Shown here piece by piece: positions 7,773 to 58,824 of a stretch of DNA of 64,000 bases. Numbering within the stretch: the first letter of the stretch is position 1; the number at the start of each line of letters is the position of its first letter. The notes under the pieces are model-generated. The model was not told where the DNA came from, searched no databases, and saw only the letters and a list, made by a program, of their open reading frames with translations. The DNA lies in contig LVBB01000121.1 of NCBI GenBank assembly GCA_001603075.1, positions 62,001 through 126,000 of the forward strand, written 5' to 3'. Source of the DNA: Phycisphaerales bacterium Planc_01. GTDB lineage: Bacteria > Planctomycetota > Phycisphaerae > Sedimentisphaerales > Anaerobacaceae. The translations under genes were made by a program, and so were the position numbers.

Positions 7773-8852
7773 ATGGCACTGTTTGACAAGATACGCGGCG
7801 AATTCATCGACATCATCGAGTGGACCGATTCGTCCAGCGACACGATCGTCTACCGCTTCGAGCGGCACGACAATGAGATCAAGATGGGGGCGCGACTGAC
7901 GGTGCGCGAGGCCCAGAGGGCGATCTTCGTCAACAAGGGCCAGATCGCCGACGTCTTCGAGCCGGGCATGTACACGCTGGAAACGGACAACCTGCCGATC
8001 CTTTCGACCCTGATGGGCTGGCGTCACGGGTTCCACAGCCCGTTCAAAGCCGAGGTGTACTTCGTCAACATGCGGCGATTCACCGACCTGAAGTGGGGCA
8101 CGAAACACCCCATCACGCTGCGCGACGCGGAGTTCGGCCCGGTGCGACTGCGAGCGTTCGGGACCTATGTCATGCGAGTCTGCGATCCAAAGGTGCTCCT
8201 CCGCGAGATCGTCGGCACCGACGGGCACTTCACGACCGGCGAGATCACCGATCAGCTCCGCAACCTGATCGTCTCGCGCTTCGCCGACGTCCTGGCCGAG
8301 AGCAGGATCCCCGTGCTCGATCTGGCGGCCAACTATGAGGAACTGGGGCAGTTCGTCACCGAGCGGATCAAGCAGGAGTTCGCCAACTACGGGCTCGAAC
8401 TGACCACCATGCTGGTCGAGAACATCTCGCTGCCGCCGACGGTCGAAGAGGCGCTCGACAAGCGAACGAGCATGGGCGCGATCGGCGACCTGCACAAGTA
8501 TACGCAGTTCCAGGCGGCCAACGCGATGGAGGAGGCGGCCAAGAACCCCGGCGGCATGGCCGGCGGAGGCATGGGCATGGGCATGGGGTTCGCGATGGCC
8601 AATCAGATGGGCCAGGCGATGGCGGACCAGGGCGCCGCACCCCCGCCGCTGCCGCAGTCGGGCCCCTTCTACGCGGCGTTCGAGGGCCAGCAGGCCGGAC
8701 CGTTCGATCTGGCGGCGATGCAGCAGCACATCGAGAGCGGCCGGCTCACGCCGCAGACGCTCGTCTGGCATAAAGGCATGGCCGGCTGGGTCGCCGCCGA
8801 GCACGTCAAGGAACTCAAGGGCCTCTTCGACGGCCCGCCGCCCCTGCCGTGA
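7773..8852 (+). CDS. YdjI-like SPFH (band 7) protein with C-terminal GYF_2 domain
   Basis: Residues 1 to about 250 match the SPFH branch known as YdjI or virion-core-like proteins: DKIRGEFIDIIEWTD at the N terminus, then a stomatin-type core ending in a charged helix (VEEALDKRTSMGAIGDLHKY). A Met/Gly-rich linker (about 255-290) follows. Residues ~297-345 form a GYF_2 domain (FYAAFEGQQAGPFDLAAM, LVWHKGMAGW), which usually binds proline-rich peptides. There is no signal peptide, so it probably acts on the cytoplasmic face of the membrane as an oligomeric scaffold. GGAGATCGTC precedes the ATG. The upstream zinc-ribbon protein, which has a Pro-rich linker, is a plausible ligand of the GYF domain. 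Confidence 0.9.
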   Translation: MALFDKIRGEFIDIIEWTDSSSDTIVYRFERHDNEIKMGARLTVREAQRAIFVNKGQIADVFEPGMYTLETDNLPILSTLMGWRHGFHSPFKAEVYFVNMRRFTDLKWGTKHPITLRDAEFGPVRLRAFGTYVMRVCDPKVLLREIVGTDGHFTTGEITDQLRNLIVSRFADVLAESRIPVLDLAANYEELGQFVTERIKQEFANYGLELTTMLVENISLPPTVEEALDKRTSMGAIGDLHKYTQFQAANAMEEAAKNPGGMAGGGMGMGMGFAMANQMGQAMADQGAAPPPLPQSGPFYAAFEGQQAGPFDLAAMQQHIESGRLTPQTLVWHKGMAGWVAAEHVKELKGLFDGPPPLP

Positions 8853-8896: not shown

Positions 8897-10723
8897 ATGA
8901 GACATTGGCATGTTGGCGTTGCGATTGGGATGGTCCTGCTGTCGGTCGGCACGGCTGGTGCACAGCAACCAAATCCACCGGGGCAGGCGGTAGGAATCGA
9001 ACCAGTCCATCAGGCGTACCTGTTCGCCCACATGGTGCACGAGGACTATGGGCGGCTGTATTACTCCGTCAGCCTCGACGGCCTGCACTGGACCGCTCTG
9101 AACGACGGGCGGCGCGTCTATGGCGACTACCGGGGCCATCCGGACATCTGCAAGGGCCACGACGGGCGGTATTACCTCGTGGGCAATCGCAACGACTCGG
9201 CGCCTGATATCAATTTCTGGGTCTCCGACGACCTGATCCGCTGGGAGCGTTACAGCGACGTGACGCCCGACCTGCCGCGTACGCCCGGCTACGCGCAGGC
9301 GCTGCCGCGAATCGGCGCGCCGAAGCTGTTCTATGACGTCGATTCGTCGCAGTACGTCCTCACCTGGCACACGCCGCACCAGCACGGCACGCCCGAGGAC
9401 CCCGAACGCTACTGGGCCAGCCAGCGGACGTTGTACCTGACGTCGAAGGACTTGCGGACCTTCTCCGATCCGCCGCGACGCCTCTTCGAATGGGACATGG
9501 CGACGATCGACGTCGTCATCCGCAAGCAACGCGATCGCTACTACGCCATCGTCAAGGATGAGCGCTATCCGACGCTCGACTGGCCGACCGGCAAGACCAT
9601 TCGCATCAGCTCGGCGCCGGCGCTGCTTGGGCCGTACAGCGAACCGGCGACGCCGATCAGCCCGAATTTCCGCGAGGCCCCGGCCCTGATCCCATCGCCC
9701 GACGGCACGGTCTGGTACCTGTACTACGAGCAGTATCCGGGCGTCTCCTACGGCTTGTCTGTGGCGGCCGACCTGGACGGGCCGTGGCACCAGATCTCCG
9801 GCTACACCTTCTTCAGCGATTGGGACAAGTACAGCCTGCCGCCCAAGGTCCGTCACGGCTGCATGATCGCCATCAGCCGGGCCGAGTACGATGCTCTGCT
9901 CGCCTGCCGGAGTTGGCCGGGCGCGGCCGAGGAACAGGCGCTGACGTTCTTTGGCTGGTCGGATCAGCACGTACAGGTCGACGGCAACGCCGATCACCTG
10001 ACCCCCGCCATCGACGCAATGAACGCCCTGCCCGGCCGGGCCTGGCCCGAATCCGTCGGCGGCGCCGTCGCCGAGCCGGCGTTCGTGTTCGGACTGGGCG
10101 ACCTCACCGAATGGCCCAGCCAGGCCGCCAGGGAAGCCTACGAGCAACGCGTCACCAGGCGGCTGAGATTCCCCAGCTACGACGTCGCGGGCAACCACGA
10201 CATCGGCGGCAATTCGCCGGTGCCGACCGTACTCGACTGGCTCATCGCGCGCCACGGCGCGCTGCGATACACGTTCGAGAAAGGCGGCGTCCTGTTCGTC
10301 GCGCTGTTCAGCGAATACGATGAGAGTCTCAACAACCCCGCGCAGCCCATCTCCAAAGAGGCGCTGAGCTACCTCCGCGAGACGCTGGCAAACGTGCCCA
10401 GGGACAAGCCCGTCATCGTCGCGACGCATCTGTGCTTCGACGCAATCACCAACCACGACGAATTGGTGGATGCCCTCGGCGACGCCAACATCCTCTGCGT
10501 CCTCGGCGGCCACTACCACAAGGCCAAGGTGACCCGCTACCGCCAGATCGACTTCGTCCAACTGCCCAGCCCCGCTCCGAACTCGTCCGACGAGTTCACC
10601 GTCTTCCGCATCACCGCCGACCGCCTCGTCGCCATCCCCTTCGACTACACCAGAAACGAATGGGCCACCGACAAAGGCAAGATCCTCGACAAACCCATCC
10701 ACGGCCCGATCAGAATAGAGTGA
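8897..10723 (+). CDS. Exported GH43-like beta-propeller fused to a metallophosphoesterase
   Basis: I chose ATG 8897 because GGAGA lies 6 nt upstream and a signal peptide (MRHWHVGVAIGMVLLSVGTAGAQ) follows at once. Residues ~30-340 form a five-bladed-propeller type repeat like GH43/GH32 enzymes (YYSVSLDGLHWT, HDGRYYLVGNRND, FWVSDDLIRWERY). Residues ~350-600 are a calcineurin-like phosphoesterase with all its metal motifs in order: D356-Q-H358, G401-D402, G-N433-H434-D435, H511, and G-H539-Y-H541. The joint is in frame with no stop or shift. The propeller may bind or trim a glycan while the second domain removes a phosphate or cleaves a phosphodiester, outside the cytoplasm. The exact substrate is unknown. 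Confidence 0.88.
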   Translation: MRHWHVGVAIGMVLLSVGTAGAQQPNPPGQAVGIEPVHQAYLFAHMVHEDYGRLYYSVSLDGLHWTALNDGRRVYGDYRGHPDICKGHDGRYYLVGNRNDSAPDINFWVSDDLIRWERYSDVTPDLPRTPGYAQALPRIGAPKLFYDVDSSQYVLTWHTPHQHGTPEDPERYWASQRTLYLTSKDLRTFSDPPRRLFEWDMATIDVVIRKQRDRYYAIVKDERYPTLDWPTGKTIRISSAPALLGPYSEPATPISPNFREAPALIPSPDGTVWYLYYEQYPGVSYGLSVAADLDGPWHQISGYTFFSDWDKYSLPPKVRHGCMIAISRAEYDALLACRSWPGAAEEQALTFFGWSDQHVQVDGNADHLTPAIDAMNALPGRAWPESVGGAVAEPAFVFGLGDLTEWPSQAAREAYEQRVTRRLRFPSYDVAGNHDIGGNSPVPTVLDWLIARHGALRYTFEKGGVLFVALFSEYDESLNNPAQPISKEALSYLRETLANVPRDKPVIVATHLCFDAITNHDELVDALGDANILCVLGGHYHKAKVTRYRQIDFVQLPSPAPNSSDEFTVFRITADRLVAIPFDYTRNEWATDKGKILDKPIHGPIRIE

Positions 10724-11147
10724 CCCTATGGGGATGCCCGCCGCCTCTTGTCATCCTGAGCGGAGCGGAGCGCAGTCGAAGGATCTGGCCAGAGACCAAG
10801 GTCGCGCCCGACTTGCAGCCATCCCCAAGGCCTCGCTGCGCTACGCCTTGAGGCTGCCACCCACCCGAAGAACAGGACCCGGGTGCCGGCCTCTGATATA
10901 GCGCAGCAGATGCACGTGATATTTCACCCCGCCTCGTTCACACAGGAGCATCCAGGTCACGACCTTGTCATTCCGAGCGTAGTCGAGGAATCTCGCGGCG
11001 AATCAGCCGCGTGCTTGTCTATGCCCAGACCCCTCGATCCGCCTGCGGCGGACTCGGGGTGACAAGAGCAGCCCGCGATGCTTCTGTCCAACTCTACCGT
11101 ATACGTCACTTCCGTCTCAACCATCGTCTCACTCATGGTTCCTACCT
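10724..11147. repeat. Gene-free gap with dispersed repeat copy (10965-11070)
   Basis: The gap lies between convergent genes. Positions 10965-11070 are an almost complete copy of the sequence at 12008-12114, beginning TTGTCATTCCGAGCG and ending GGGGTGACAAGAGCA, with ends that are inverted to each other (TTGTCA/TGACAA). A shorter relative (GTCATCCTGAGCGGAG) lies at 10749. No reading frame in the gap looks like a gene. Confidence 0.75.
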
Positions 11148-12212: not shown

Positions 12213-13472
12213 TCACGCGGTGCTGCATGCGCGGCGGATTTCTTCGGCGATGAGGTCGAGGCCGGAGGCGACGGTGGCGTCGTCCTGGGCGTAGCTGATG
12301 CGGAGGCACTCGTCGGCGTGGGACCAGGGCTCGGCCAGGCCGGGGAAGAAGTAATGGCCGGGCACGACGATCACGTTGCGGGCCTTGAGCCGCTCGTAGA
12401 GCTGCCGACAGGAGATCGGCAGGCCCGGCAGCCACAGCCACAGGAAGAACGCCCCTTCCGGCCGATGCAGGTGGTAGTCGATCCCGTCGAGACGGCGGGC
12501 GAGGTGCTCAACGGCCCGGCGGGCCTTACACTCGTAGAACGGCGCGATCACCTCGCGACTGAGCCGAAGGATCTCGCCCGAGCGGACCAGATCGGTGACG
12601 ATCGCCGTGCCCAGGCCGCCCGGCGCCAGGCTCATCACGGCGTTGGCCCGCGCGACCGCTTCGACGATCTCCTCGCGTGCGATGACGATCCCCGTCCGCA
12701 CCGCCGGCAGCCCCAGCTTCGAGAGGCTCATGCACACGATCGTGTGCTCGTTCCAGACGGGCTCGGCCTCGCCAAAGACGATGTGCGGAAACGGCAGGCC
12801 GTAGGCGTTGTCCACGATCAGCGGAACGCCCTTGTCGCGGGCCAGGTCGCCCAGCCGGCGCAGCTCGTCGTTGGTCAGCACGTTGCCGCTCGGATTCGTC
12901 GGCCGCGAGACGCAGATCGCGCCGACGTCGTCGGTCACATCGAGCCGGTCGAAATCGACGTGGTATTTGAACAGGTGTTCGTCGAGCATCTCGATCCGAG
13001 GCCGAATCGCGACGAACGCATTCGGCGCCAGCATCACGTCGCAGTAGCCGATATACTCGGGCGTCAGCGGGAACAGCACCTTCTTCGTGGTCCCGTCGTC
13101 CTGCTCGCCCGCGAAGAGATTGAACAGAATGAAGAATGCCAACTGGCTGCCGTTGGTCAGCGCGATGTGGCGCGGGCCGATGTCCCAGCCGAATTGCTCG
13201 CGCAGCAGACCGGCCAGGGCTACGATGAATTCGCGGTCGCCTTCGGGCGGATCGTACTGCCCCACCGCCCGCTCGAAACGCCGCCCGTCCGCGAGCAACG
13301 CCGTCATGCCGGCGCGAAAGGCCCGTTCGACCTCAGGAATCTGCGCGGGATTGCCGCCGCCGAGCATGTGGACCGGCCCGGTCTGCGACGGCGCAGCGCC
13401 GAGATCGTCCATGAGCTGCCCGATGCCCGACTGGACCGCGATCTGCCGACCGAATTTCGAGAGCTGCATCAT
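12213..13472 (-). CDS. avtA: Valine-pyruvate aminotransferase
   Basis: This PLP enzyme transfers the amino group between valine and pyruvate (alanine/2-oxoisovalerate). The 419-residue product follows E. coli AvtA closely: SGIGQLMDDLG, MLGGGNPAQIPE, ALTNGSQLAFF, LFPLTPEYIGYCD, VSRPTNPSGNVLT, IVDNAYG (D221, Y224), and SLSKLGLPAVRTG with the PLP lysine K252, then PEGAFFLWLWLPGLPI and VVPGHYFFPGL. The frame is open further upstream, but I start at ATG 13472 because E. coli AvtA begins near here and this ATG overlaps the addA stop codon (ATGA), giving translational coupling. A biosynthetic gene riding at the end of addBA is unusual. Confidence 0.95.
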   Translation of the reverse strand: MMQLSKFGRQIAVQSGIGQLMDDLGAAPSQTGPVHMLGGGNPAQIPEVERAFRAGMTALLADGRRFERAVGQYDPPEGDREFIVALAGLLREQFGWDIGPRHIALTNGSQLAFFILFNLFAGEQDDGTTKKVLFPLTPEYIGYCDVMLAPNAFVAIRPRIEMLDEHLFKYHVDFDRLDVTDDVGAICVSRPTNPSGNVLTNDELRRLGDLARDKGVPLIVDNAYGLPFPHIVFGEAEPVWNEHTIVCMSLSKLGLPAVRTGIVIAREEIVEAVARANAVMSLAPGGLGTAIVTDLVRSGEILRLSREVIAPFYECKARRAVEHLARRLDGIDYHLHRPEGAFFLWLWLPGLPISCRQLYERLKARNVIVVPGHYFFPGLAEPWSHADECLRISYAQDDATVASGLDLIAEEIRRACSTA

Positions 13473-51657: not shown

Positions 51658-52353
51658 ATGAAGATCATCGTCACCGACCTGACGAGGTTCAACAACCAAG
51701 ATGTCTGCATCGCAGGCATTTGCCCCGATACCGGGGCTTGTATCCGGCCCCTGCCCTACCTTTCCAAGGCCAGGTGTCTGGAACTCAACATCCTGCCAGG
51801 CGCGATTCTCGCGGGGCAGTTCACCCCAAGACGGTGCTCACCCCCTCATGGGGAGGATCACTCCTACAAGAATCTGGTCTTTTGCGGGCCTTGTTCTTCA
51901 GCAGCGTTCCGTAACATACTGGCGGAGAGTGCGACTGAGTCCGTGGAAGACGGGTTCTCCGTTCGGATTCCACAAGGCCAGAAGTACATACCCACAGAAA
52001 CGCCACCGAATATCTCTATCATCACACTCCGCATCGACCCACAGGGTTTGCAGATCGTCAAAGATTGCTATAATGACACCAAGCTCCGAGTCCATATCAT
52101 GGAGAACTCCGGCAGAGAACTCAGGTACATATCGATAACGGATTTGGGGTTCTATGAATGTGCCATGAGTCATGTTGCCGAGCGTGGTGCATTGGACAGG
52201 CTGAATGATTTTCTCCACTCGCAGGAGGAGGTGTTCGTCCGGGTGGGATTGAGCCGAGAACATGAGTCTCAGGGGAGAAAAGGTTTTTGGATACAGGCGA
52301 ACGGGATTTATACTTTTCCGGATTGCCCAAAGGATATAAGGTCCTACCATTGA
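51658..52353 (+). CDS. Dual-OB-like protein in a DUF488 operon
   Basis: I start at ATG 51658, 7 nt after AAAGGAG. The 231-residue protein begins MKIIVTDLTRFNNQDVCIAG then GICPDTGACIRPL. This pattern (an N-terminal beta strand, CIAGI, DTG, IRP) is what I recall for proteins named dual-OB-domain proteins, with two OB-type barrels expected in residues ~1-90 and ~100-220. There is no signal peptide or membrane segment. OB folds suggest nucleic-acid binding. It is followed at 13 nt by a DUF488 gene and then a second one, an arrangement too tight to be chance. The family call is from memory of the motif and is moderate. Confidence 0.65.
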   Translation: MKIIVTDLTRFNNQDVCIAGICPDTGACIRPLPYLSKARCLELNILPGAILAGQFTPRRCSPPHGEDHSYKNLVFCGPCSSAAFRNILAESATESVEDGFSVRIPQGQKYIPTETPPNISIITLRIDPQGLQIVKDCYNDTKLRVHIMENSGRELRYISITDLGFYECAMSHVAERGALDRLNDFLHSQEEVFVRVGLSREHESQGRKGFWIQANGIYTFPDCPKDIRSYH

Positions 52354-52366
52354 AGGTGGTGTTGAC

Positions 52367-52993
52367 GTGGGCCATATCTTCACAATCGGATACGCACCTC
52401 ACACGATCGCATCCTTCTGCGGCGTCTTGAAGCAACACGGTATTACGGCCGTCGCCGACGTGCGATCGAATCCTCACAGCAGGTTCAAGCCCGAGTTCAA
52501 CCGAGAGAACCTCACGGTGGCTCTACGCAAGATGGGTATTGCCTACGTCTTCATCGGCGACTTGTGCGGCGCCAGGCCGGACATACCGGCATGCTACGTC
52601 GATGGCGTTGTCCGTCTTGACATTCTCGCCAACCGCTCGGAGTTTCGGCAGGGCATCGAACGTCTCCAGCAAGGAATGGGACGTTTCCGCGTGGCCGTAA
52701 TGTGCGCCGAAAAGGACCCCATTGCATGCCATCGCATGGTGTTGATATCGCGTCATCTGCACCACGCGTCACACATGACGGTCCAACACATCCTGAGCGA
52801 CGGATCGTGCGAAGACCAGCGAGAGGCCGAAGCCCGTCTGTTACGGATCTACGACCTGGCATCGGAAGAACTCCCCGGGTTTGGAAGGTCTTATGAGGAA
52901 CGCCTTGACGAAGCCTACAGGCGGCAAGCCGAGCGAATCGCGCATCACGCCGACGAGGACGCGGAAGAGACTGTTCGGGTGAAGCATGCGTGA
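52367..52993 (+). CDS. DUF488 family protein (first copy, 208 aa)
   Basis: The N terminus has the DUF488 signature FTIGYAPHTIASFCGVLKQHGITAVADVRSNPHSRF, then GIAYVFIGDLCGARP, and VAVMCAEKDPIACHRMVL, in which Cys and CHR are the conserved presumed active-site residues. A C-terminal extension of ~70 charged residues (EARLLRIYDLASEELPGF and RRQAERIAHHADEDAEE) is extra compared with the second copy. GTG 52367 is the start, with AAGGTGG before it. It sits 13 nt after the dual-OB gene, and its stop overlaps the next gene by 8 nt. The biochemical activity of DUF488 is not established to my knowledge. Confidence 0.9.
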   Translation: MGHIFTIGYAPHTIASFCGVLKQHGITAVADVRSNPHSRFKPEFNRENLTVALRKMGIAYVFIGDLCGARPDIPACYVDGVVRLDILANRSEFRQGIERLQQGMGRFRVAVMCAEKDPIACHRMVLISRHLHHASHMTVQHILSDGSCEDQREAEARLLRIYDLASEELPGFGRSYEERLDEAYRRQAERIAHHADEDAEETVRVKHA

Positions 52994-53429
52994 GGTCAGG
53001 CTGTACACTATCGGCTTCACGAAGAAGACGGCCGAGGAGTTCTTCACGGTTCTCCGAGGAGTCCATGTCAAGACTCTGATCGATGTCCGTCTCAATAACG
53101 TATCCCAACTGGCCGGTTTCGCAAAACGAGATGACTTGGCCTTCTTCTTGCATGAGATCTGCCAGTGCAACTACCGACACGAACCGGTTCTTGCACCTTC
53201 AGCGGCTATTCTCGACGCCTATAAGAAGAAGGCGATGGACTGGACCGAATACGAAGCGAGGTTCGGCGCGCTCTTGAGAGAACGACAGCCGGAGGACCAC
53301 ATCGATCTGGCCACACTGGACCAGGCTTGCCTGTTATGCAGTGAGCCAAAAGCGGACAAATGCCATCGCCGTCTGGTCGCCGAATATTTCAGAAGTAAGC
53401 TCGGCCACATCCGAATCGTACACCTCTGA
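52986..53429 (+). CDS. DUF488 family protein (second copy, 147 aa)
   Basis: A shorter paralogue of the preceding gene: LYTIGFTKKTAEEFFTVLRG, then VKTLIDVRLNNVSQLAGFAK, YRHEPVLAPSAAILDAYKKK and ACLLCSEPKADKCHRRLVAEYF with the same Cys and CHR motif. It overlaps the first copy by 8 nt, so the two are cotranslated. The two copies are clearly different in sequence (little identity outside the motifs), so they are old paralogues kept as a pair and may form a heterodimer. Confidence 0.9.
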   Translation: MREVRLYTIGFTKKTAEEFFTVLRGVHVKTLIDVRLNNVSQLAGFAKRDDLAFFLHEICQCNYRHEPVLAPSAAILDAYKKKAMDWTEYEARFGALLRERQPEDHIDLATLDQACLLCSEPKADKCHRRLVAEYFRSKLGHIRIVHL

Positions 53430-53470
53430 CATCTGCTCTGCGGCATAGCCATCGTCCAGACGAGGAAATA

Positions 53471-53530
53471 AAGGTGTCCGGTGCTTTTCTGGGTCTTCGT
53501 CCGGGGCGGATGGCGGATTGGGGCGGCGTC
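53471..53530 (+). repeat. 60-bp direct repeat, left copy
   Basis: AAGGTGTCCGGTGCTTTTC leads into GGGTCTTCGTC and GGATGGCGGATTGGGGCGG. A near copy in the same orientation is at 55386-55446. Between 53531 and 53968 there is no convincing gene; the stretch holds CGTGAAGCG microsatellite units, a motif GAACGAAACGGTGTCCGG (inverted relative of the sequence at the IS30 remnant), and a TATAATCT at 53750. Confidence 0.85.
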
Positions 53531-53968
53531 TTTTTCACGTGAAGCGGCGTTCGTGAAGCGTGAAGCGGGCGGTCGGGGGGAACGAAACGGTGTCCGGTAC
53601 ATTTTCTGGAGGGGGTCGGGTTTGTCGCGAGGGCATCCGGGCGAGGACGTTCGTGGTAGCGCAGACCGATCGCGCCGGCGGCGTGGGGCGGGCGCGCCGC
53701 TGGGGGGTGGGTGGAGGTGTTTTTTGGTGGTGTGGGAGGCGGTGCGGGGGTATAATCTACTGGTTGCCGGTTGTTCATCATCGTATCGGTTGCGGCGGTT
53801 CTTCGGGGGCCTGCACGGCGCGGATATCGACGAGATCCTGGGCATGAACCTGGTGGCGGTCTGGCAACACCGGGCTCAGGGCCGGGCACGATTCCGCTGA
53901 CGGCATCGCGTTGACGCACCGCATATTTCCCGAGCCGGACCAAGCCACTCGGGGAGAAGGAGAAGACC

Positions 53969-55339
53969 TTGGCCGAGAGAGCTGAGATACCGAAAAGCAA
54001 GGGACCGCTCCAGCGTCCGGTGGACAAGCGCCACGCGCTGTTGCGGGTGGAGGGAAAGAACGCCTGGATTCGGAGTCTGGATCGGGGGCTGGCGGAGACG
54101 TTCTGCAGGCTGGTGACGCGGGGGGATCGCGTGACCGGGGCACGGAGCGTGGGGGTGGTCTCGTGGGGGATTTACGCGGGGCAGCCCGACCAGACGGGCA
54201 CGATTCTTCTCGATCGCAAGTCGGACGGTCGGTTCAAGCTCGTGGCATTGGACGATGCGGCGAACGAGCTGCTGGAACAGGTGGCGCGGCTCGTGGGACG
54301 CGAGGGCAGCGTGAGCGGCGAAGAGGGCAAGCATGGACGGGTTCTTCGCGGCGAGATGCGGAAGCCGAACGGGTCGATCGGGACGGAGGCGACGGCTCTG
54401 GAAGTGGAATCCGGAGTCGGAGCGGGCGAAGAGAAGGCGAGGAAGGGGAAGATCCCCAAGAGCAAAGGACCGCTCCAGCGTCCGGTGGACAAGCGTCACG
54501 CGCTGTTGCGGGTGGAGGGAAAGAACGCCTGGATTCGGAGTCTGGACCGCGAGTTGGCGGAAACGCTTTGCACGCTGGTGACGGAGGGGGCCCCCGTGAC
54601 CGGGGCGCGGAGCGTGGGGGTGGTCTCGTGGGGGATTTACGCGGGGCAGCCCGACCAGACGGGCACGATCCTTCTCGATCGCAAGTCGGACGGTCGGTTC
54701 AAGCTCGTGGCATTGGACGATGCGGCGGACGAGCTGCTGGAAGAGGTGGCGCGGCTCGTGGGACGCGAGGGCAGCGTGAGCGGCGAAGAAGGCAAGCATG
54801 GACGGGTTCTTCGCGGCGAGATGCGGAAGCCGGACGAAGCGGCCCGGACGCAGGGGACGGGTGCGGCATCGGAGGCGGAGGGCGCGCCGGGCAACGAGGC
54901 GCCGGCAGGTGAATTCGAGACGATTACGGGGGAAGATGCCATCGCGGCCATTGGGCAGAAGGTCGCCATGGAGTTCATCGAGCGTGGCATCAAGATCCGC
55001 ATCCGGGGCAAGCAGGCGGACTGCGAGATGACGGCGAAGCGCATTCTCAAGGGCAGCCCGACGGTGGCTTCGCAGCAGGGTGCGAAATACATGATCGAAG
55101 GCAACCTGAGTAAGTCCTATCTGAGGAAAGGAGCCCACCAGCAGGGTCCCGATGCCAACGGTGTGTGTACCAGGGAGGACGGCCCGGAGCGTAGCGTCAC
55201 GGCGTTCGGAGAGAACCTGCGGGCGGTGGAGGCGGCATGCCTTACCGGCTGCAAGAAGGAGACGATGTTCACGATCGTGGTCAACGACCGCTCGACGGGT
55301 TACGTCGTGATCAGTTCGGGCAGGCGGCGCATGGTGTGA
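53969..55339 (+). CDS. Unrecognised protein with two nearly identical 155-residue units
   Basis: I do not recognise this family. A TTG at 53969 follows AAGGAG by 6 nt and gives 456 residues without signal peptide or membrane segment. Residues ~6-135 and ~161-290 are repeats with a period of exactly 465 bp (155 codons), each from IPKSKGPLQRPVDKRHALLRV through SVGVVSWGIYAGQPDQTG to GKHGRVLRGEMRKP. Differences are mostly in one short block. The final ~145 residues are unique (FETITGEDAIAAIGQKVAME, FIERGIKIRIRGKQADCE, CLTGCKKETMFTIVVNDRS). Coding is supported by codon use and in-frame duplication. The opposite strand is also open, but the product there is a shadow. The gene lies inside a pair of 60-bp direct repeats. 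Confidence 0.7.
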   Translation: MAERAEIPKSKGPLQRPVDKRHALLRVEGKNAWIRSLDRGLAETFCRLVTRGDRVTGARSVGVVSWGIYAGQPDQTGTILLDRKSDGRFKLVALDDAANELLEQVARLVGREGSVSGEEGKHGRVLRGEMRKPNGSIGTEATALEVESGVGAGEEKARKGKIPKSKGPLQRPVDKRHALLRVEGKNAWIRSLDRELAETLCTLVTEGAPVTGARSVGVVSWGIYAGQPDQTGTILLDRKSDGRFKLVALDDAADELLEEVARLVGREGSVSGEEGKHGRVLRGEMRKPDEAARTQGTGAASEAEGAPGNEAPAGEFETITGEDAIAAIGQKVAMEFIERGIKIRIRGKQADCEMTAKRILKGSPTVASQQGAKYMIEGNLSKSYLRKGAHQQGPDANGVCTREDGPERSVTAFGENLRAVEAACLTGCKKETMFTIVVNDRSTGYVVISSGRRRMV

Positions 55340-55385
55340 TGGGGGCTGCAGACGGTAGGCTGCAGGGCGGAGGGATTCCGAATTC

Positions 55386-55446
55386 AAGGTGTCCGGTGCT
55401 TTTCGGGGGTCTTCGTCTGGGGTGGATGGTGGATTGGGGCGGTGGC
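55386..55446 (+). repeat. 60-bp direct repeat, right copy
   Basis: Matches 53471-53530 with a few substitutions and one extra base, same orientation. A REP-like palindrome (GGATGGGCTTTGGCCCAT) follows at 55458-55475. Confidence 0.85.
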
Positions 55447-58131: not shown

Positions 58132-58824
58132 ATGGCAAGGGCTTCGCGTATTGTGATCGCCGGTTGCGCCCATCATGTGACGCAGCGGGGCAACAACTGG
58201 CAGGAGGTGTTCGAGGCGGATGAGGACCGGGAGGTCTTTCTGGCCTATCTGCGGGAGGCGTCGCAGCGGTTCGACCTGACGGTCGAGGGATACTGTCTGA
58301 TGGGCAACCACGTCCATCTGATCGCCACGCCGCAGCAGGAGGAGTCCCTGGCCCTGGCGCTGAAGCGGACGAACCAGTTATACGCCCAATACGCCAACCG
58401 CCGGCACGGGCGCAGCGGCCATCTCTGGCAGGACCGCTTCTTCTCCTGCGCGCTCGACGACAGTCATTTCTGGAAGGCCCTGGCGTACGTGGAGCGGAAT
58501 CCCGTTCGCGCGGGGCTGTGTCGCAAGCCGTGGCGGTGGGTCTGGAGCAGCGCCGCGTCCCACTGCGGCGGGCGGGACGGCTCCGCCCTGCTGGACCTGG
58601 ACGCCTGGAGCGAGCAGATCGACCCGGCGTGGTGGAAGGACCACATCGACGAGCCCGAGGACGAAACGGATGTGCGCGAGCTTCGCCTCTGGACCAGCCG
58701 GGGCCGGCCCTGGGGCAGCGATCGGTTCGTCCGAAAGATCGAGGTCCGCCTGGGCAAACGCCTCCGCCCCCGCCCCCCCGGCCGACCGAAGAAGAACCCC
58801 AGGAGAGGGGTGCGTCCCCGCTGA
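58132..58824 (+). CDS. REP-associated tyrosine transposase (RAYT), intact
   Basis: The 230-residue protein is a Y1/HuH transposase of the RAYT type. It has AGCAHHVTQRGNN at the start, H60-V-H62 in LMGNHVHLIA (the HuH metal site), and NQLYAQYANRRHGRSGHLWQDRF with candidate catalytic Y84. The conserved tail includes YVERNPVRAGLCRKPWRWVWSS. No complete IS200-like ends are visible. RAYTs move or spread REP palindromes, and this window holds about ten such palindromes, so it is the candidate enzyme. ATG 58132 follows a purine-rich GGGGG run. The Arg/Pro-rich C terminus is probably for nucleic-acid contact. Confidence 0.9.
   Translation: MARASRIVIAGCAHHVTQRGNNWQEVFEADEDREVFLAYLREASQRFDLTVEGYCLMGNHVHLIATPQQEESLALALKRTNQLYAQYANRRHGRSGHLWQDRFFSCALDDSHFWKALAYVERNPVRAGLCRKPWRWVWSSAASHCGGRDGSALLDLDAWSEQIDPAWWKDHIDEPEDETDVRELRLWTSRGRPWGSDRFVRKIEVRLGKRLRPRPPGRPKKNPRRGVRPR

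What the first reader, a model, noticed from the sequence alone, without database searches (positions are those of the whole stretch)
51658..53429. Compact operon: dual-OB-like protein plus two diverged DUF488 proteins
Three genes within 1.8 kb on one strand are spaced 13 nt apart and then overlap by 8 nt. Seen: both DUF488 copies keep the Cys and CHR motifs but differ widely elsewhere, and one has a ~70-residue charged tail. The first gene has a CIAGI-DTG-IRP start as in dual-OB proteins. Inference: OB folds would bind a nucleic acid, and the two DUF488 subunits could form a heteromeric enzyme acting on it. This could be a nucleic-acid modification, damage-response or defence unit. It sits beside a transposase-rich stretch, which fits an accessory role.
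Basis: partly seen in the sequence, partly recalled or inferred. Interest (0 to 1): 0.75.

Follow-up and report, generated by a model that had tools for sequence, protein, structure and literature searches.

The report
Mobile DNA-binding plus twin-enzyme gene trio
Three adjacent genes encode a protein predicted to grip single-stranded DNA and two related cysteine enzymes; the trio recurs intact across many bacterial phyla, plasmids and prophages, is listed by a defence database only as an untested anti-virus candidate, and here carries a divergent DNA-binding partner which that database's models miss.

Summary
In detail: three + strand genes, A 51658-52353, B 52367-52993 and C 52986-53429, with a 13-nt gap and an 8-nt overlap. 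A is a divergent dual-OB (DuOB) protein. B and C are DUF488 paralogues with intact motifs (C-x-E-x5-CHR; C-x-LCSE-x5-CHRR). B and C match PADLOC's untested candidate PDC-M45B and PDC-M45C (E 3e-70, 2e-64); A escapes PDC-M45A. The trio recurs in 68 of 80 loci from many phyla and in 10 of 11 viral contigs. Starting from DuOB instead, all 10 hits with enough flank carry both DUF488 genes. The cassette is patchy (DuOB in 13 of 294 genomes) and absent at this site in a sister genome; B falls among Desulfobacterota sequences. Also: DuOB is fused to RecQ in relatives, is exchanged under a conserved B/C pair, and on small plasmids B is replaced by mSLOG-DUF4326. AlphaFold gives A an RPA/telomere-end-binding-like OB fold and B a cysteine-phosphatase-like fold sharing the Cys/His-Arg motif of RapZ's phosphate pocket. 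Best reading: a mobile nucleic-acid-end-processing unit, probably defensive. The chemistry is inferred; a published prediction of this kind is recalled but was not readable here.

The parts
51658..52353 (+). Gene A: divergent dual-OB (DuOB) protein, 231 aa, predicted single-stranded nucleic-acid binder
   Evidence: Pfam DuOB E 4e-5, 24.1 bits, below the curated 27; AlphaFold pLDDT 93.5, pTM 0.90; Foldseek best matches are tandem-OB ssDNA binders
52367..52993 (+). Gene B: DUF488 paralogue with a conserved helical C-terminal extension, 208 aa, GTG start
   Evidence: Pfam DUF488 E 4e-22; PADLOC PDC-M45B E 2.7e-70; AlphaFold pLDDT 93.0; cysteine-phosphatase-like fold
52986..53429 (+). Gene C: DUF488 paralogue, 147 aa, overlapping the end of B by 8 nt
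   Evidence: Pfam DUF488 E 1e-19 and DUF488-N3a E 3e-10; PADLOC PDC-M45C E 2.4e-64
52457..52465 (+). DVR motif of B (residues 31-33)
   Evidence: Invariant in 42 homologues; collinear with DVR of RapZ-CTD
52703..52735 (+). Putative active-site loop of B (C113 to R123, C-x-E-x5-CHR)
   Evidence: Invariant in 98 of 98 B proteins; aligns with the C247...H252-R253 pocket of RapZ
53082..53090 (+). DVR motif of C (residues 33-35)
   Evidence: D33 and R35 invariant in 46 homologues
53328..53372 (+). Putative active-site loop of C (C115 to R129, C-x-LCSE-x5-CHRR)
   Evidence: Motif kept in 81 of 83 C proteins

Best explanation
A mobile three-subunit nucleic-acid-end-processing unit of the DuOB-DUF488-DUF488 kind (PADLOC candidate PDC-M45), most likely an anti-invader (defence) system. 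Proposed mechanism: A, a tandem-OB protein, grips single-stranded DNA or a DNA end (in relatives the RecQ helicase fused to it would make that single strand) and sets the target. B and C, related Rossmann-like cysteine proteins that probably pair, take a nucleic-acid phosphate into a Cys / His-Arg pocket and do a cysteine-dependent phosphate or sugar-phosphate reaction that blocks, opens or marks the end. Shown here: gene order, families, motif conservation, cross-phylum co-inheritance of the trio, patchy occurrence, horizontal signal, RecQ fusion, exchange of A. Inferred: DNA rather than RNA, B-C pairing, the chemistry, and the defensive role.
For: B and C match PDC-M45B/C. Trio in 68 of 80 loci, next to DuOB in all 10 DuOB-first loci with enough flank, and in 10 of 11 viral contigs. 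A: tandem-OB model, best matches RPA70, Teb1, TEBP alpha, SSB. B: cysteine-phosphatase-like fold with RapZ-collinear motifs; in RapZ the matching residues contact the RNA backbone and C247 is essential (PMC9841335). DuOB fused to RecQ. Patchy and horizontal. Plasmid copies inside type III-B CRISPR or beside CBASS. A is the fastest-changing and exchanged subunit.
Against: No experiment. The RapZ link is statistically weak (p 0.0037, probability 9%). Fold scores are middling (Z about 8). The most frequent chromosomal neighbours are housekeeping genes, and no defence gene was recognised beside the window cassette. RecQ fusion fits repair equally well. The A model of PADLOC does not match the window protein.
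Confidence: 0.5

Rival explanations
1. An accessory DNA-repair or recombination module: DuOB and RecQ open damaged DNA and the DUF488 pair cleans blocked ends of the cell's own DNA; defence neighbours are hitch-hikers on mobile DNA.
For: RecQ-DuOB fusions; housekeeping neighbours in chromosomes; both cysteine motifs kept almost everywhere.
Against: Very patchy occurrence (13 of 294 genomes), horizontal signal, plasmid and prophage carriage beside CRISPR, CBASS, R-M and viperin, fast and exchanged A subunit.
Confidence: 0.25
2. An RNA-directed unit, RapZ-like: the DuOB and DUF488 pair binds or processes RNA ends (for example tRNA or phage RNA), in regulation or defence.
For: RapZ-CTD, the nearest characterised relative by motif, binds RNA with the matching pocket (PMC9841335); OB folds bind RNA too (tRNA synthetase OB domains are among the structural matches).
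Against: RecQ, a DNA helicase, is fused to DuOB in relatives; the highest-ranked matches of A are ssDNA binders.
Confidence: 0.15
3. A selfish or counter-defence unit of plasmids and prophages that protects the element's own DNA ends from host nucleases or from competing elements.
For: Carried by 10-67 kb plasmids, some mobilizable, and by contigs with terminase, portal and integrase genes.
Against: Most copies found are in contigs of cellular genomes; several plasmid copies lie next to host-type defence systems.
Confidence: 0.1

Closest known systems
PADLOC phage-defence candidate PDC-M45 (A = DuOB, B and C = DUF488)
   Same: Same three families; B and C match its models at E 2.7e-70 and 2.4e-64; DuOB proteins of homologous loci match PDC-M45A
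   Different: The window's A belongs to another DuOB subtype that the PDC-M45A models do not detect; the candidate itself has no experimental test that I could find
RapZ C-terminal domain (E. coli RNase adaptor protein)
   Same: Collinear motifs: G near the first strand, DVR, Cys followed by His-Arg at a helix start; in RapZ this is a phosphate/backbone pocket (PMC9841335)
   Different: Longer loop with two extra conserved residues (Glu, second Cys), no kinase-like N-terminal domain, partnered with DuOB; profile similarity not significant by itself
DuOB-DUF488-DUF4326 sets on small plasmids (L184-L188)
   Same: Same DuOB and the same C-type DUF488 (PDC-M45C E about 1e-64 or better)
   Different: An mSLOG-DUF4326 protein with a C-x-C-K-P-x2-C-H-G motif stands in the place of B
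Burroughs and Aravind 2023, Rhodanese-phosphatase superfamily (doi 10.1093/nargab/lqad029)
   Same: As recalled from its abstract, it predicts DNA-end-processing enzymes of a RapZ-C-DUF488-DUF4326 clade in conflict systems; its existence and title are confirmed by a citation in PMC12419801
   Different: Text not held, so overlap with the RecQ fusion, DuOB exchange and DUF4326 replacement found here could not be checked

Membership tests
PADLOC PDC-M45 | PDC-M45B protein | tested here: met
   E 2.7e-70 over residues 3-201
PADLOC PDC-M45 | PDC-M45C protein | tested here: met
   E 2.4e-64 over residues 5-147
PADLOC PDC-M45 | PDC-M45A protein by PADLOC's own models | tested here: not met
   No match for window A nor for L038 A of the same subtype; so filed as a variant, not a strict member
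Pfam DuOB (PF22557) | Score over the curated cut-off | tested here: inconclusive
   24.1 bits against 27, E 4e-5, 12-207 covered; same-subtype homologue L038 passes with 33.1 bits
Pfam DuOB (PF22557) | Two OB folds | tested here: met
   Predicted model with Foldseek matches to tandem-OB proteins over the whole length; only the first OB was well covered in the second look
Pfam DUF488 (PF04343) | Score over the curated cut-off in B and C | tested here: met
   79.5 and 71.9 bits against 22.2
Rhodanese-phosphatase superfamily / RapZ-C-DUF488-DUF4326 clade | Rossmann-like fold with a conserved Cys after a strand and His-Arg at the next helix start | tested here: met
   B model: strand 109-113, helix 122-135; C113, H122, R123 invariant
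Rhodanese-phosphatase superfamily / RapZ-C-DUF488-DUF4326 clade | Significant profile similarity to RapZ-C | tested here: inconclusive
   p 0.0037, probability 9%; motifs collinear
Rhodanese-phosphatase superfamily / RapZ-C-DUF488-DUF4326 clade | Cysteine-dependent phosphate or sugar-phosphate chemistry | not testable with these tools
   Needs biochemistry
Anti-phage defence system | Defence-gene neighbourhood | tested here: inconclusive
   Clear on plasmids (type III-B CRISPR, CBASS, NotI R-M, viperin), mixed in chromosomes, not seen at the window itself (by ORF inspection only)
Anti-phage defence system | Protection against phage or other invading DNA | not testable with these tools
   Needs a challenge experiment

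The most novel reading that the evidence does not exclude
A defence family with an exchangeable DNA-recognition subunit: DuOB is the recognition part, swapped between unrelated-looking versions under one conserved pair of cysteine enzymes (much as specificity subunits are exchanged in type I restriction), and the enzyme pair itself can be re-paired (DUF488-B or mSLOG-DUF4326 with the same DUF488-C). It would attack or cap DNA ends by cysteine-based phosphate chemistry not known in any tested defence system.
Probability: 0.25. Interest if true: 0.8.

Novelty: new variant of a known kind. Interest (0 to 1): 0.5.

Why it matters
DUF488 is a widespread family of unknown function, and no solved relative of these subunits was found here. 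The cassette gives it a constant partner set, a testable pocket (C113, E115, H122, R123 of B) and a testable substrate class (ssDNA or DNA ends). If defensive, it adds a cysteine-phosphatase-like chemistry to bacterial immunity, and the exchange of DuOB under a fixed enzyme pair would show which part faces the invader. PADLOC's A models need a second DuOB subtype, or such loci will be missed.

Tried and rejected
Chance neighbours: rejected by the recurrence of the trio. Solved relatives by sequence: none for A, B or C. RapZ or DUF4326 proteins were not among the listed Foldseek rows of B; absence there proves nothing. The fusion alignment (A3) put A rows on the DUF488 half, so it was dropped and the A-B interface was not modelled. 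RapZ_C in the window's taxonomic family: 0 of 60 genomes, so RapZ was taken from E. coli and from genomes of other cassette carriers. DuOB of the window's subtype on plasmids: no match. Phage records: one weak DUF488 match. Promoter and terminator scan: nothing convincing at the cassette's borders. Papers: no report on DuOB or PDC-M45 in the held library. Recurrent neighbour families in chromosomes are mostly housekeeping, so a strict defence-island claim was not made.

Full report
WHAT IS THERE. Pfam: A is DuOB, the dual-OB domain (E 4e-5, residues 12-207, but 24.1 bits against a curated 27); B and C are DUF488 (E 4e-22 and 1e-19), C also DUF488-N3a. PADLOC: B is PDC-M45B (E 2.7e-70), C is PDC-M45C (E 2.4e-64), A has no match. 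PDC-M45 is a candidate system; no experimental report was found in the held papers.

IT IS A REAL UNIT. Starting from B, 80 loci of named genomes were fetched; 68 hold all three genes side by side: 57 in the order A-B-C, 9 as B-C-A, 2 with A and B fused. Starting from DuOB instead, 13 of 294 genomes of the phylum have one; in all ten where enough flanking DNA was held (the window included) both DUF488 genes adjoin it; an eleventh has diverged DUF488 genes nearby on the other strand, and two lie on short stretches. Of 11 viral contigs with B, 10 have the whole trio, and genes near them include terminase, portal, endolysin and integrase. The C-x-E-x5-C-H-R motif is in 98 of 98 B proteins and the corresponding motif in 81 of 83 C proteins, so neither paralogue looks like a dead scaffold. 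B's 'charged tail' is a conserved helical extension.

IT IS ACCESSORY AND MOBILE. In the window's genus 2 of 6 genomes have B. In sister genome G002 the thrS gene is there (85.5% DNA identity over the stretch that holds it), but the 1.2 kb upstream, all that the contig holds, shows no trace of the cassette, whose first gene starts 565 bp upstream of thrS in the window. On a tree of B, the window and its one sister sit in a starred clade of mostly Desulfobacterota sequences, apart from the 18-row group that holds the other members of its own taxonomic family and order; those relatives with a full trio carry it as B-C-A, the window as A-B-C. This points to horizontal acquisition.

THE PARTS. A: AlphaFold pLDDT 93.5, pTM 0.90. 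Foldseek ranks tandem-OB proteins first (Teb1, RPA70, TEBP alpha, HIN domains; E from 0.002); the first OB aligns with TEBP alpha at Z 7.8 over 75 residues, rmsd 2.0. These are middling scores, but the top 24 Foldseek rows and most of the VIA rows are OB or other nucleic-acid-binding folds. B: pLDDT 93.0, pTM 0.87; best folds are cysteine phosphatases (KAP, laforin, PRL, archaeal PTP) and CbiL-type methylases, best Z 8.0-8.6. The loop from C113 to H122-R123 lies between a strand end and a helix start, as in that superfamily. No DUF488 relative with a solved structure was found by sequence.

LINK TO RapZ. E. coli RapZ-CTD and 17 further RapZ-C sequences show SFGFK, DVR, GCTGGxHRS and a final HR in the order in which DUF488 shows TIG, DVR, C...CHR and HI/HL; profile comparison gives p 0.0037, probability 9%, which is suggestive only. 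In RapZ, C247, T248, G249, H252 and R253 lie at a sulphate/malonate pocket that meets the RNA backbone; C247A and C247S abolish activity, and the authors wondered about a catalytic thiol (PMC9841335). By analogy (inference) the DUF488 pocket takes a nucleic-acid phosphate.

FUSIONS, EXCHANGE AND REPLACEMENT. In ten loci DuOB is the C-terminal part of a 724-1050 aa protein; the two scanned are RecQ helicases (DEAD, Helicase_C, RQC, HRDC). A exists in at least two subtypes: in Desulfobacterota L038 and L040, B is 79-80% and C 84% identical while the A proteins cannot be aligned beyond about 25 residues; the subtype changes at least six times on the B tree. Over 72 loci mean identity is 34% for A, 49% for B, 58% for C, and B-C distances correlate (r 0.68) better than A-B (0.47) or A-C (0.38). 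The window's A is of the rarer subtype, which PADLOC's A models miss. On small plasmids of Klebsiella, Acinetobacter, Citrobacter and Moraxella, DuOB and C stand with an mSLOG-DUF4326 protein in place of B; DUF4326 has been proposed to act on ribose-linked phosphates of ADP-ribose (PMC9503650).

DEFENCE OR NOT. For: the PADLOC listing; a plasmid copy inside a type III-B CRISPR locus, one beside CBASS and an integrase, others near a NotI-type R-M, viperin and Abi/DUF262/Dcm (B alone); PADLOC models hit by 139 neighbours: 108, by 121 random proteins: 7 (models overlap and the samples differ in taxa, so only a trend). Against: the most frequent chromosomal neighbours are housekeeping, and the window cassette sits upstream of thrS with no defence gene recognised beside it. 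RecQ fusion fits both repair and defence.

VERDICT. A divergent variant of a known but untested candidate system. My best reading is a mobile nucleic-acid-end-processing unit, probably defensive (0.5). From memory, Burroughs and Aravind 2023 (doi 10.1093/nargab/lqad029) already predict DNA-end-processing roles for the RapZ-C-DUF488-DUF4326 clade in conflict systems; I could confirm only that the paper exists, not its contents, so I claim no priority for that idea. What may be new here is the second DuOB subtype and the evidence that DuOB is exchanged under a conserved enzyme pair.

Noticed in passing
window 58132-58824 (+): ORF of 230 aa with the HHVTQRGNN motif of REP-associated tyrosine transposases (named from memory of the motif, not scanned); the only such ORF that a simple motif search found in the window.
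   Followed up: no
window 53462-53546 and 55380-55445: Dispersed repeats of 60-80 bp just downstream of the cassette; copies in sister genome G005 at 8347-8415, 10666-10729 and 12641-12718 bound a segment of about 2.4 kb that the window lacks, and a copy lies upstream of thrS in G002. Possibly REP-like elements moved by the nearby transposase.
   Followed up: partly
window 53985-54284 and 54450-54749: A 300-nt direct repeat (93%) inside the ORF 53969-55339, an internally duplicated protein of unknown kind next to the cassette.
   Followed up: no
L020, L021, L031, L034, L056 and others: Loci that keep B alone; in L020, L021 and L056 the same neighbours as in L026, which has the full trio, are still there, so A and C seem to have been lost while B was kept.
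   Followed up: partly
L184-L188 (small plasmids): DuOB, C-type DUF488 and mSLOG-DUF4326 in a row on 25-47 kb plasmids of Klebsiella, Acinetobacter, Citrobacter and Moraxella: a sister architecture in well-studied genera.
   Followed up: partly
L182 9719-16558: On plasmid RHOApe of Rhodovastum the cassette is followed by a small zinc-finger protein and then a very large SNF2-related protein gene of 9.3 kb.
   Followed up: no
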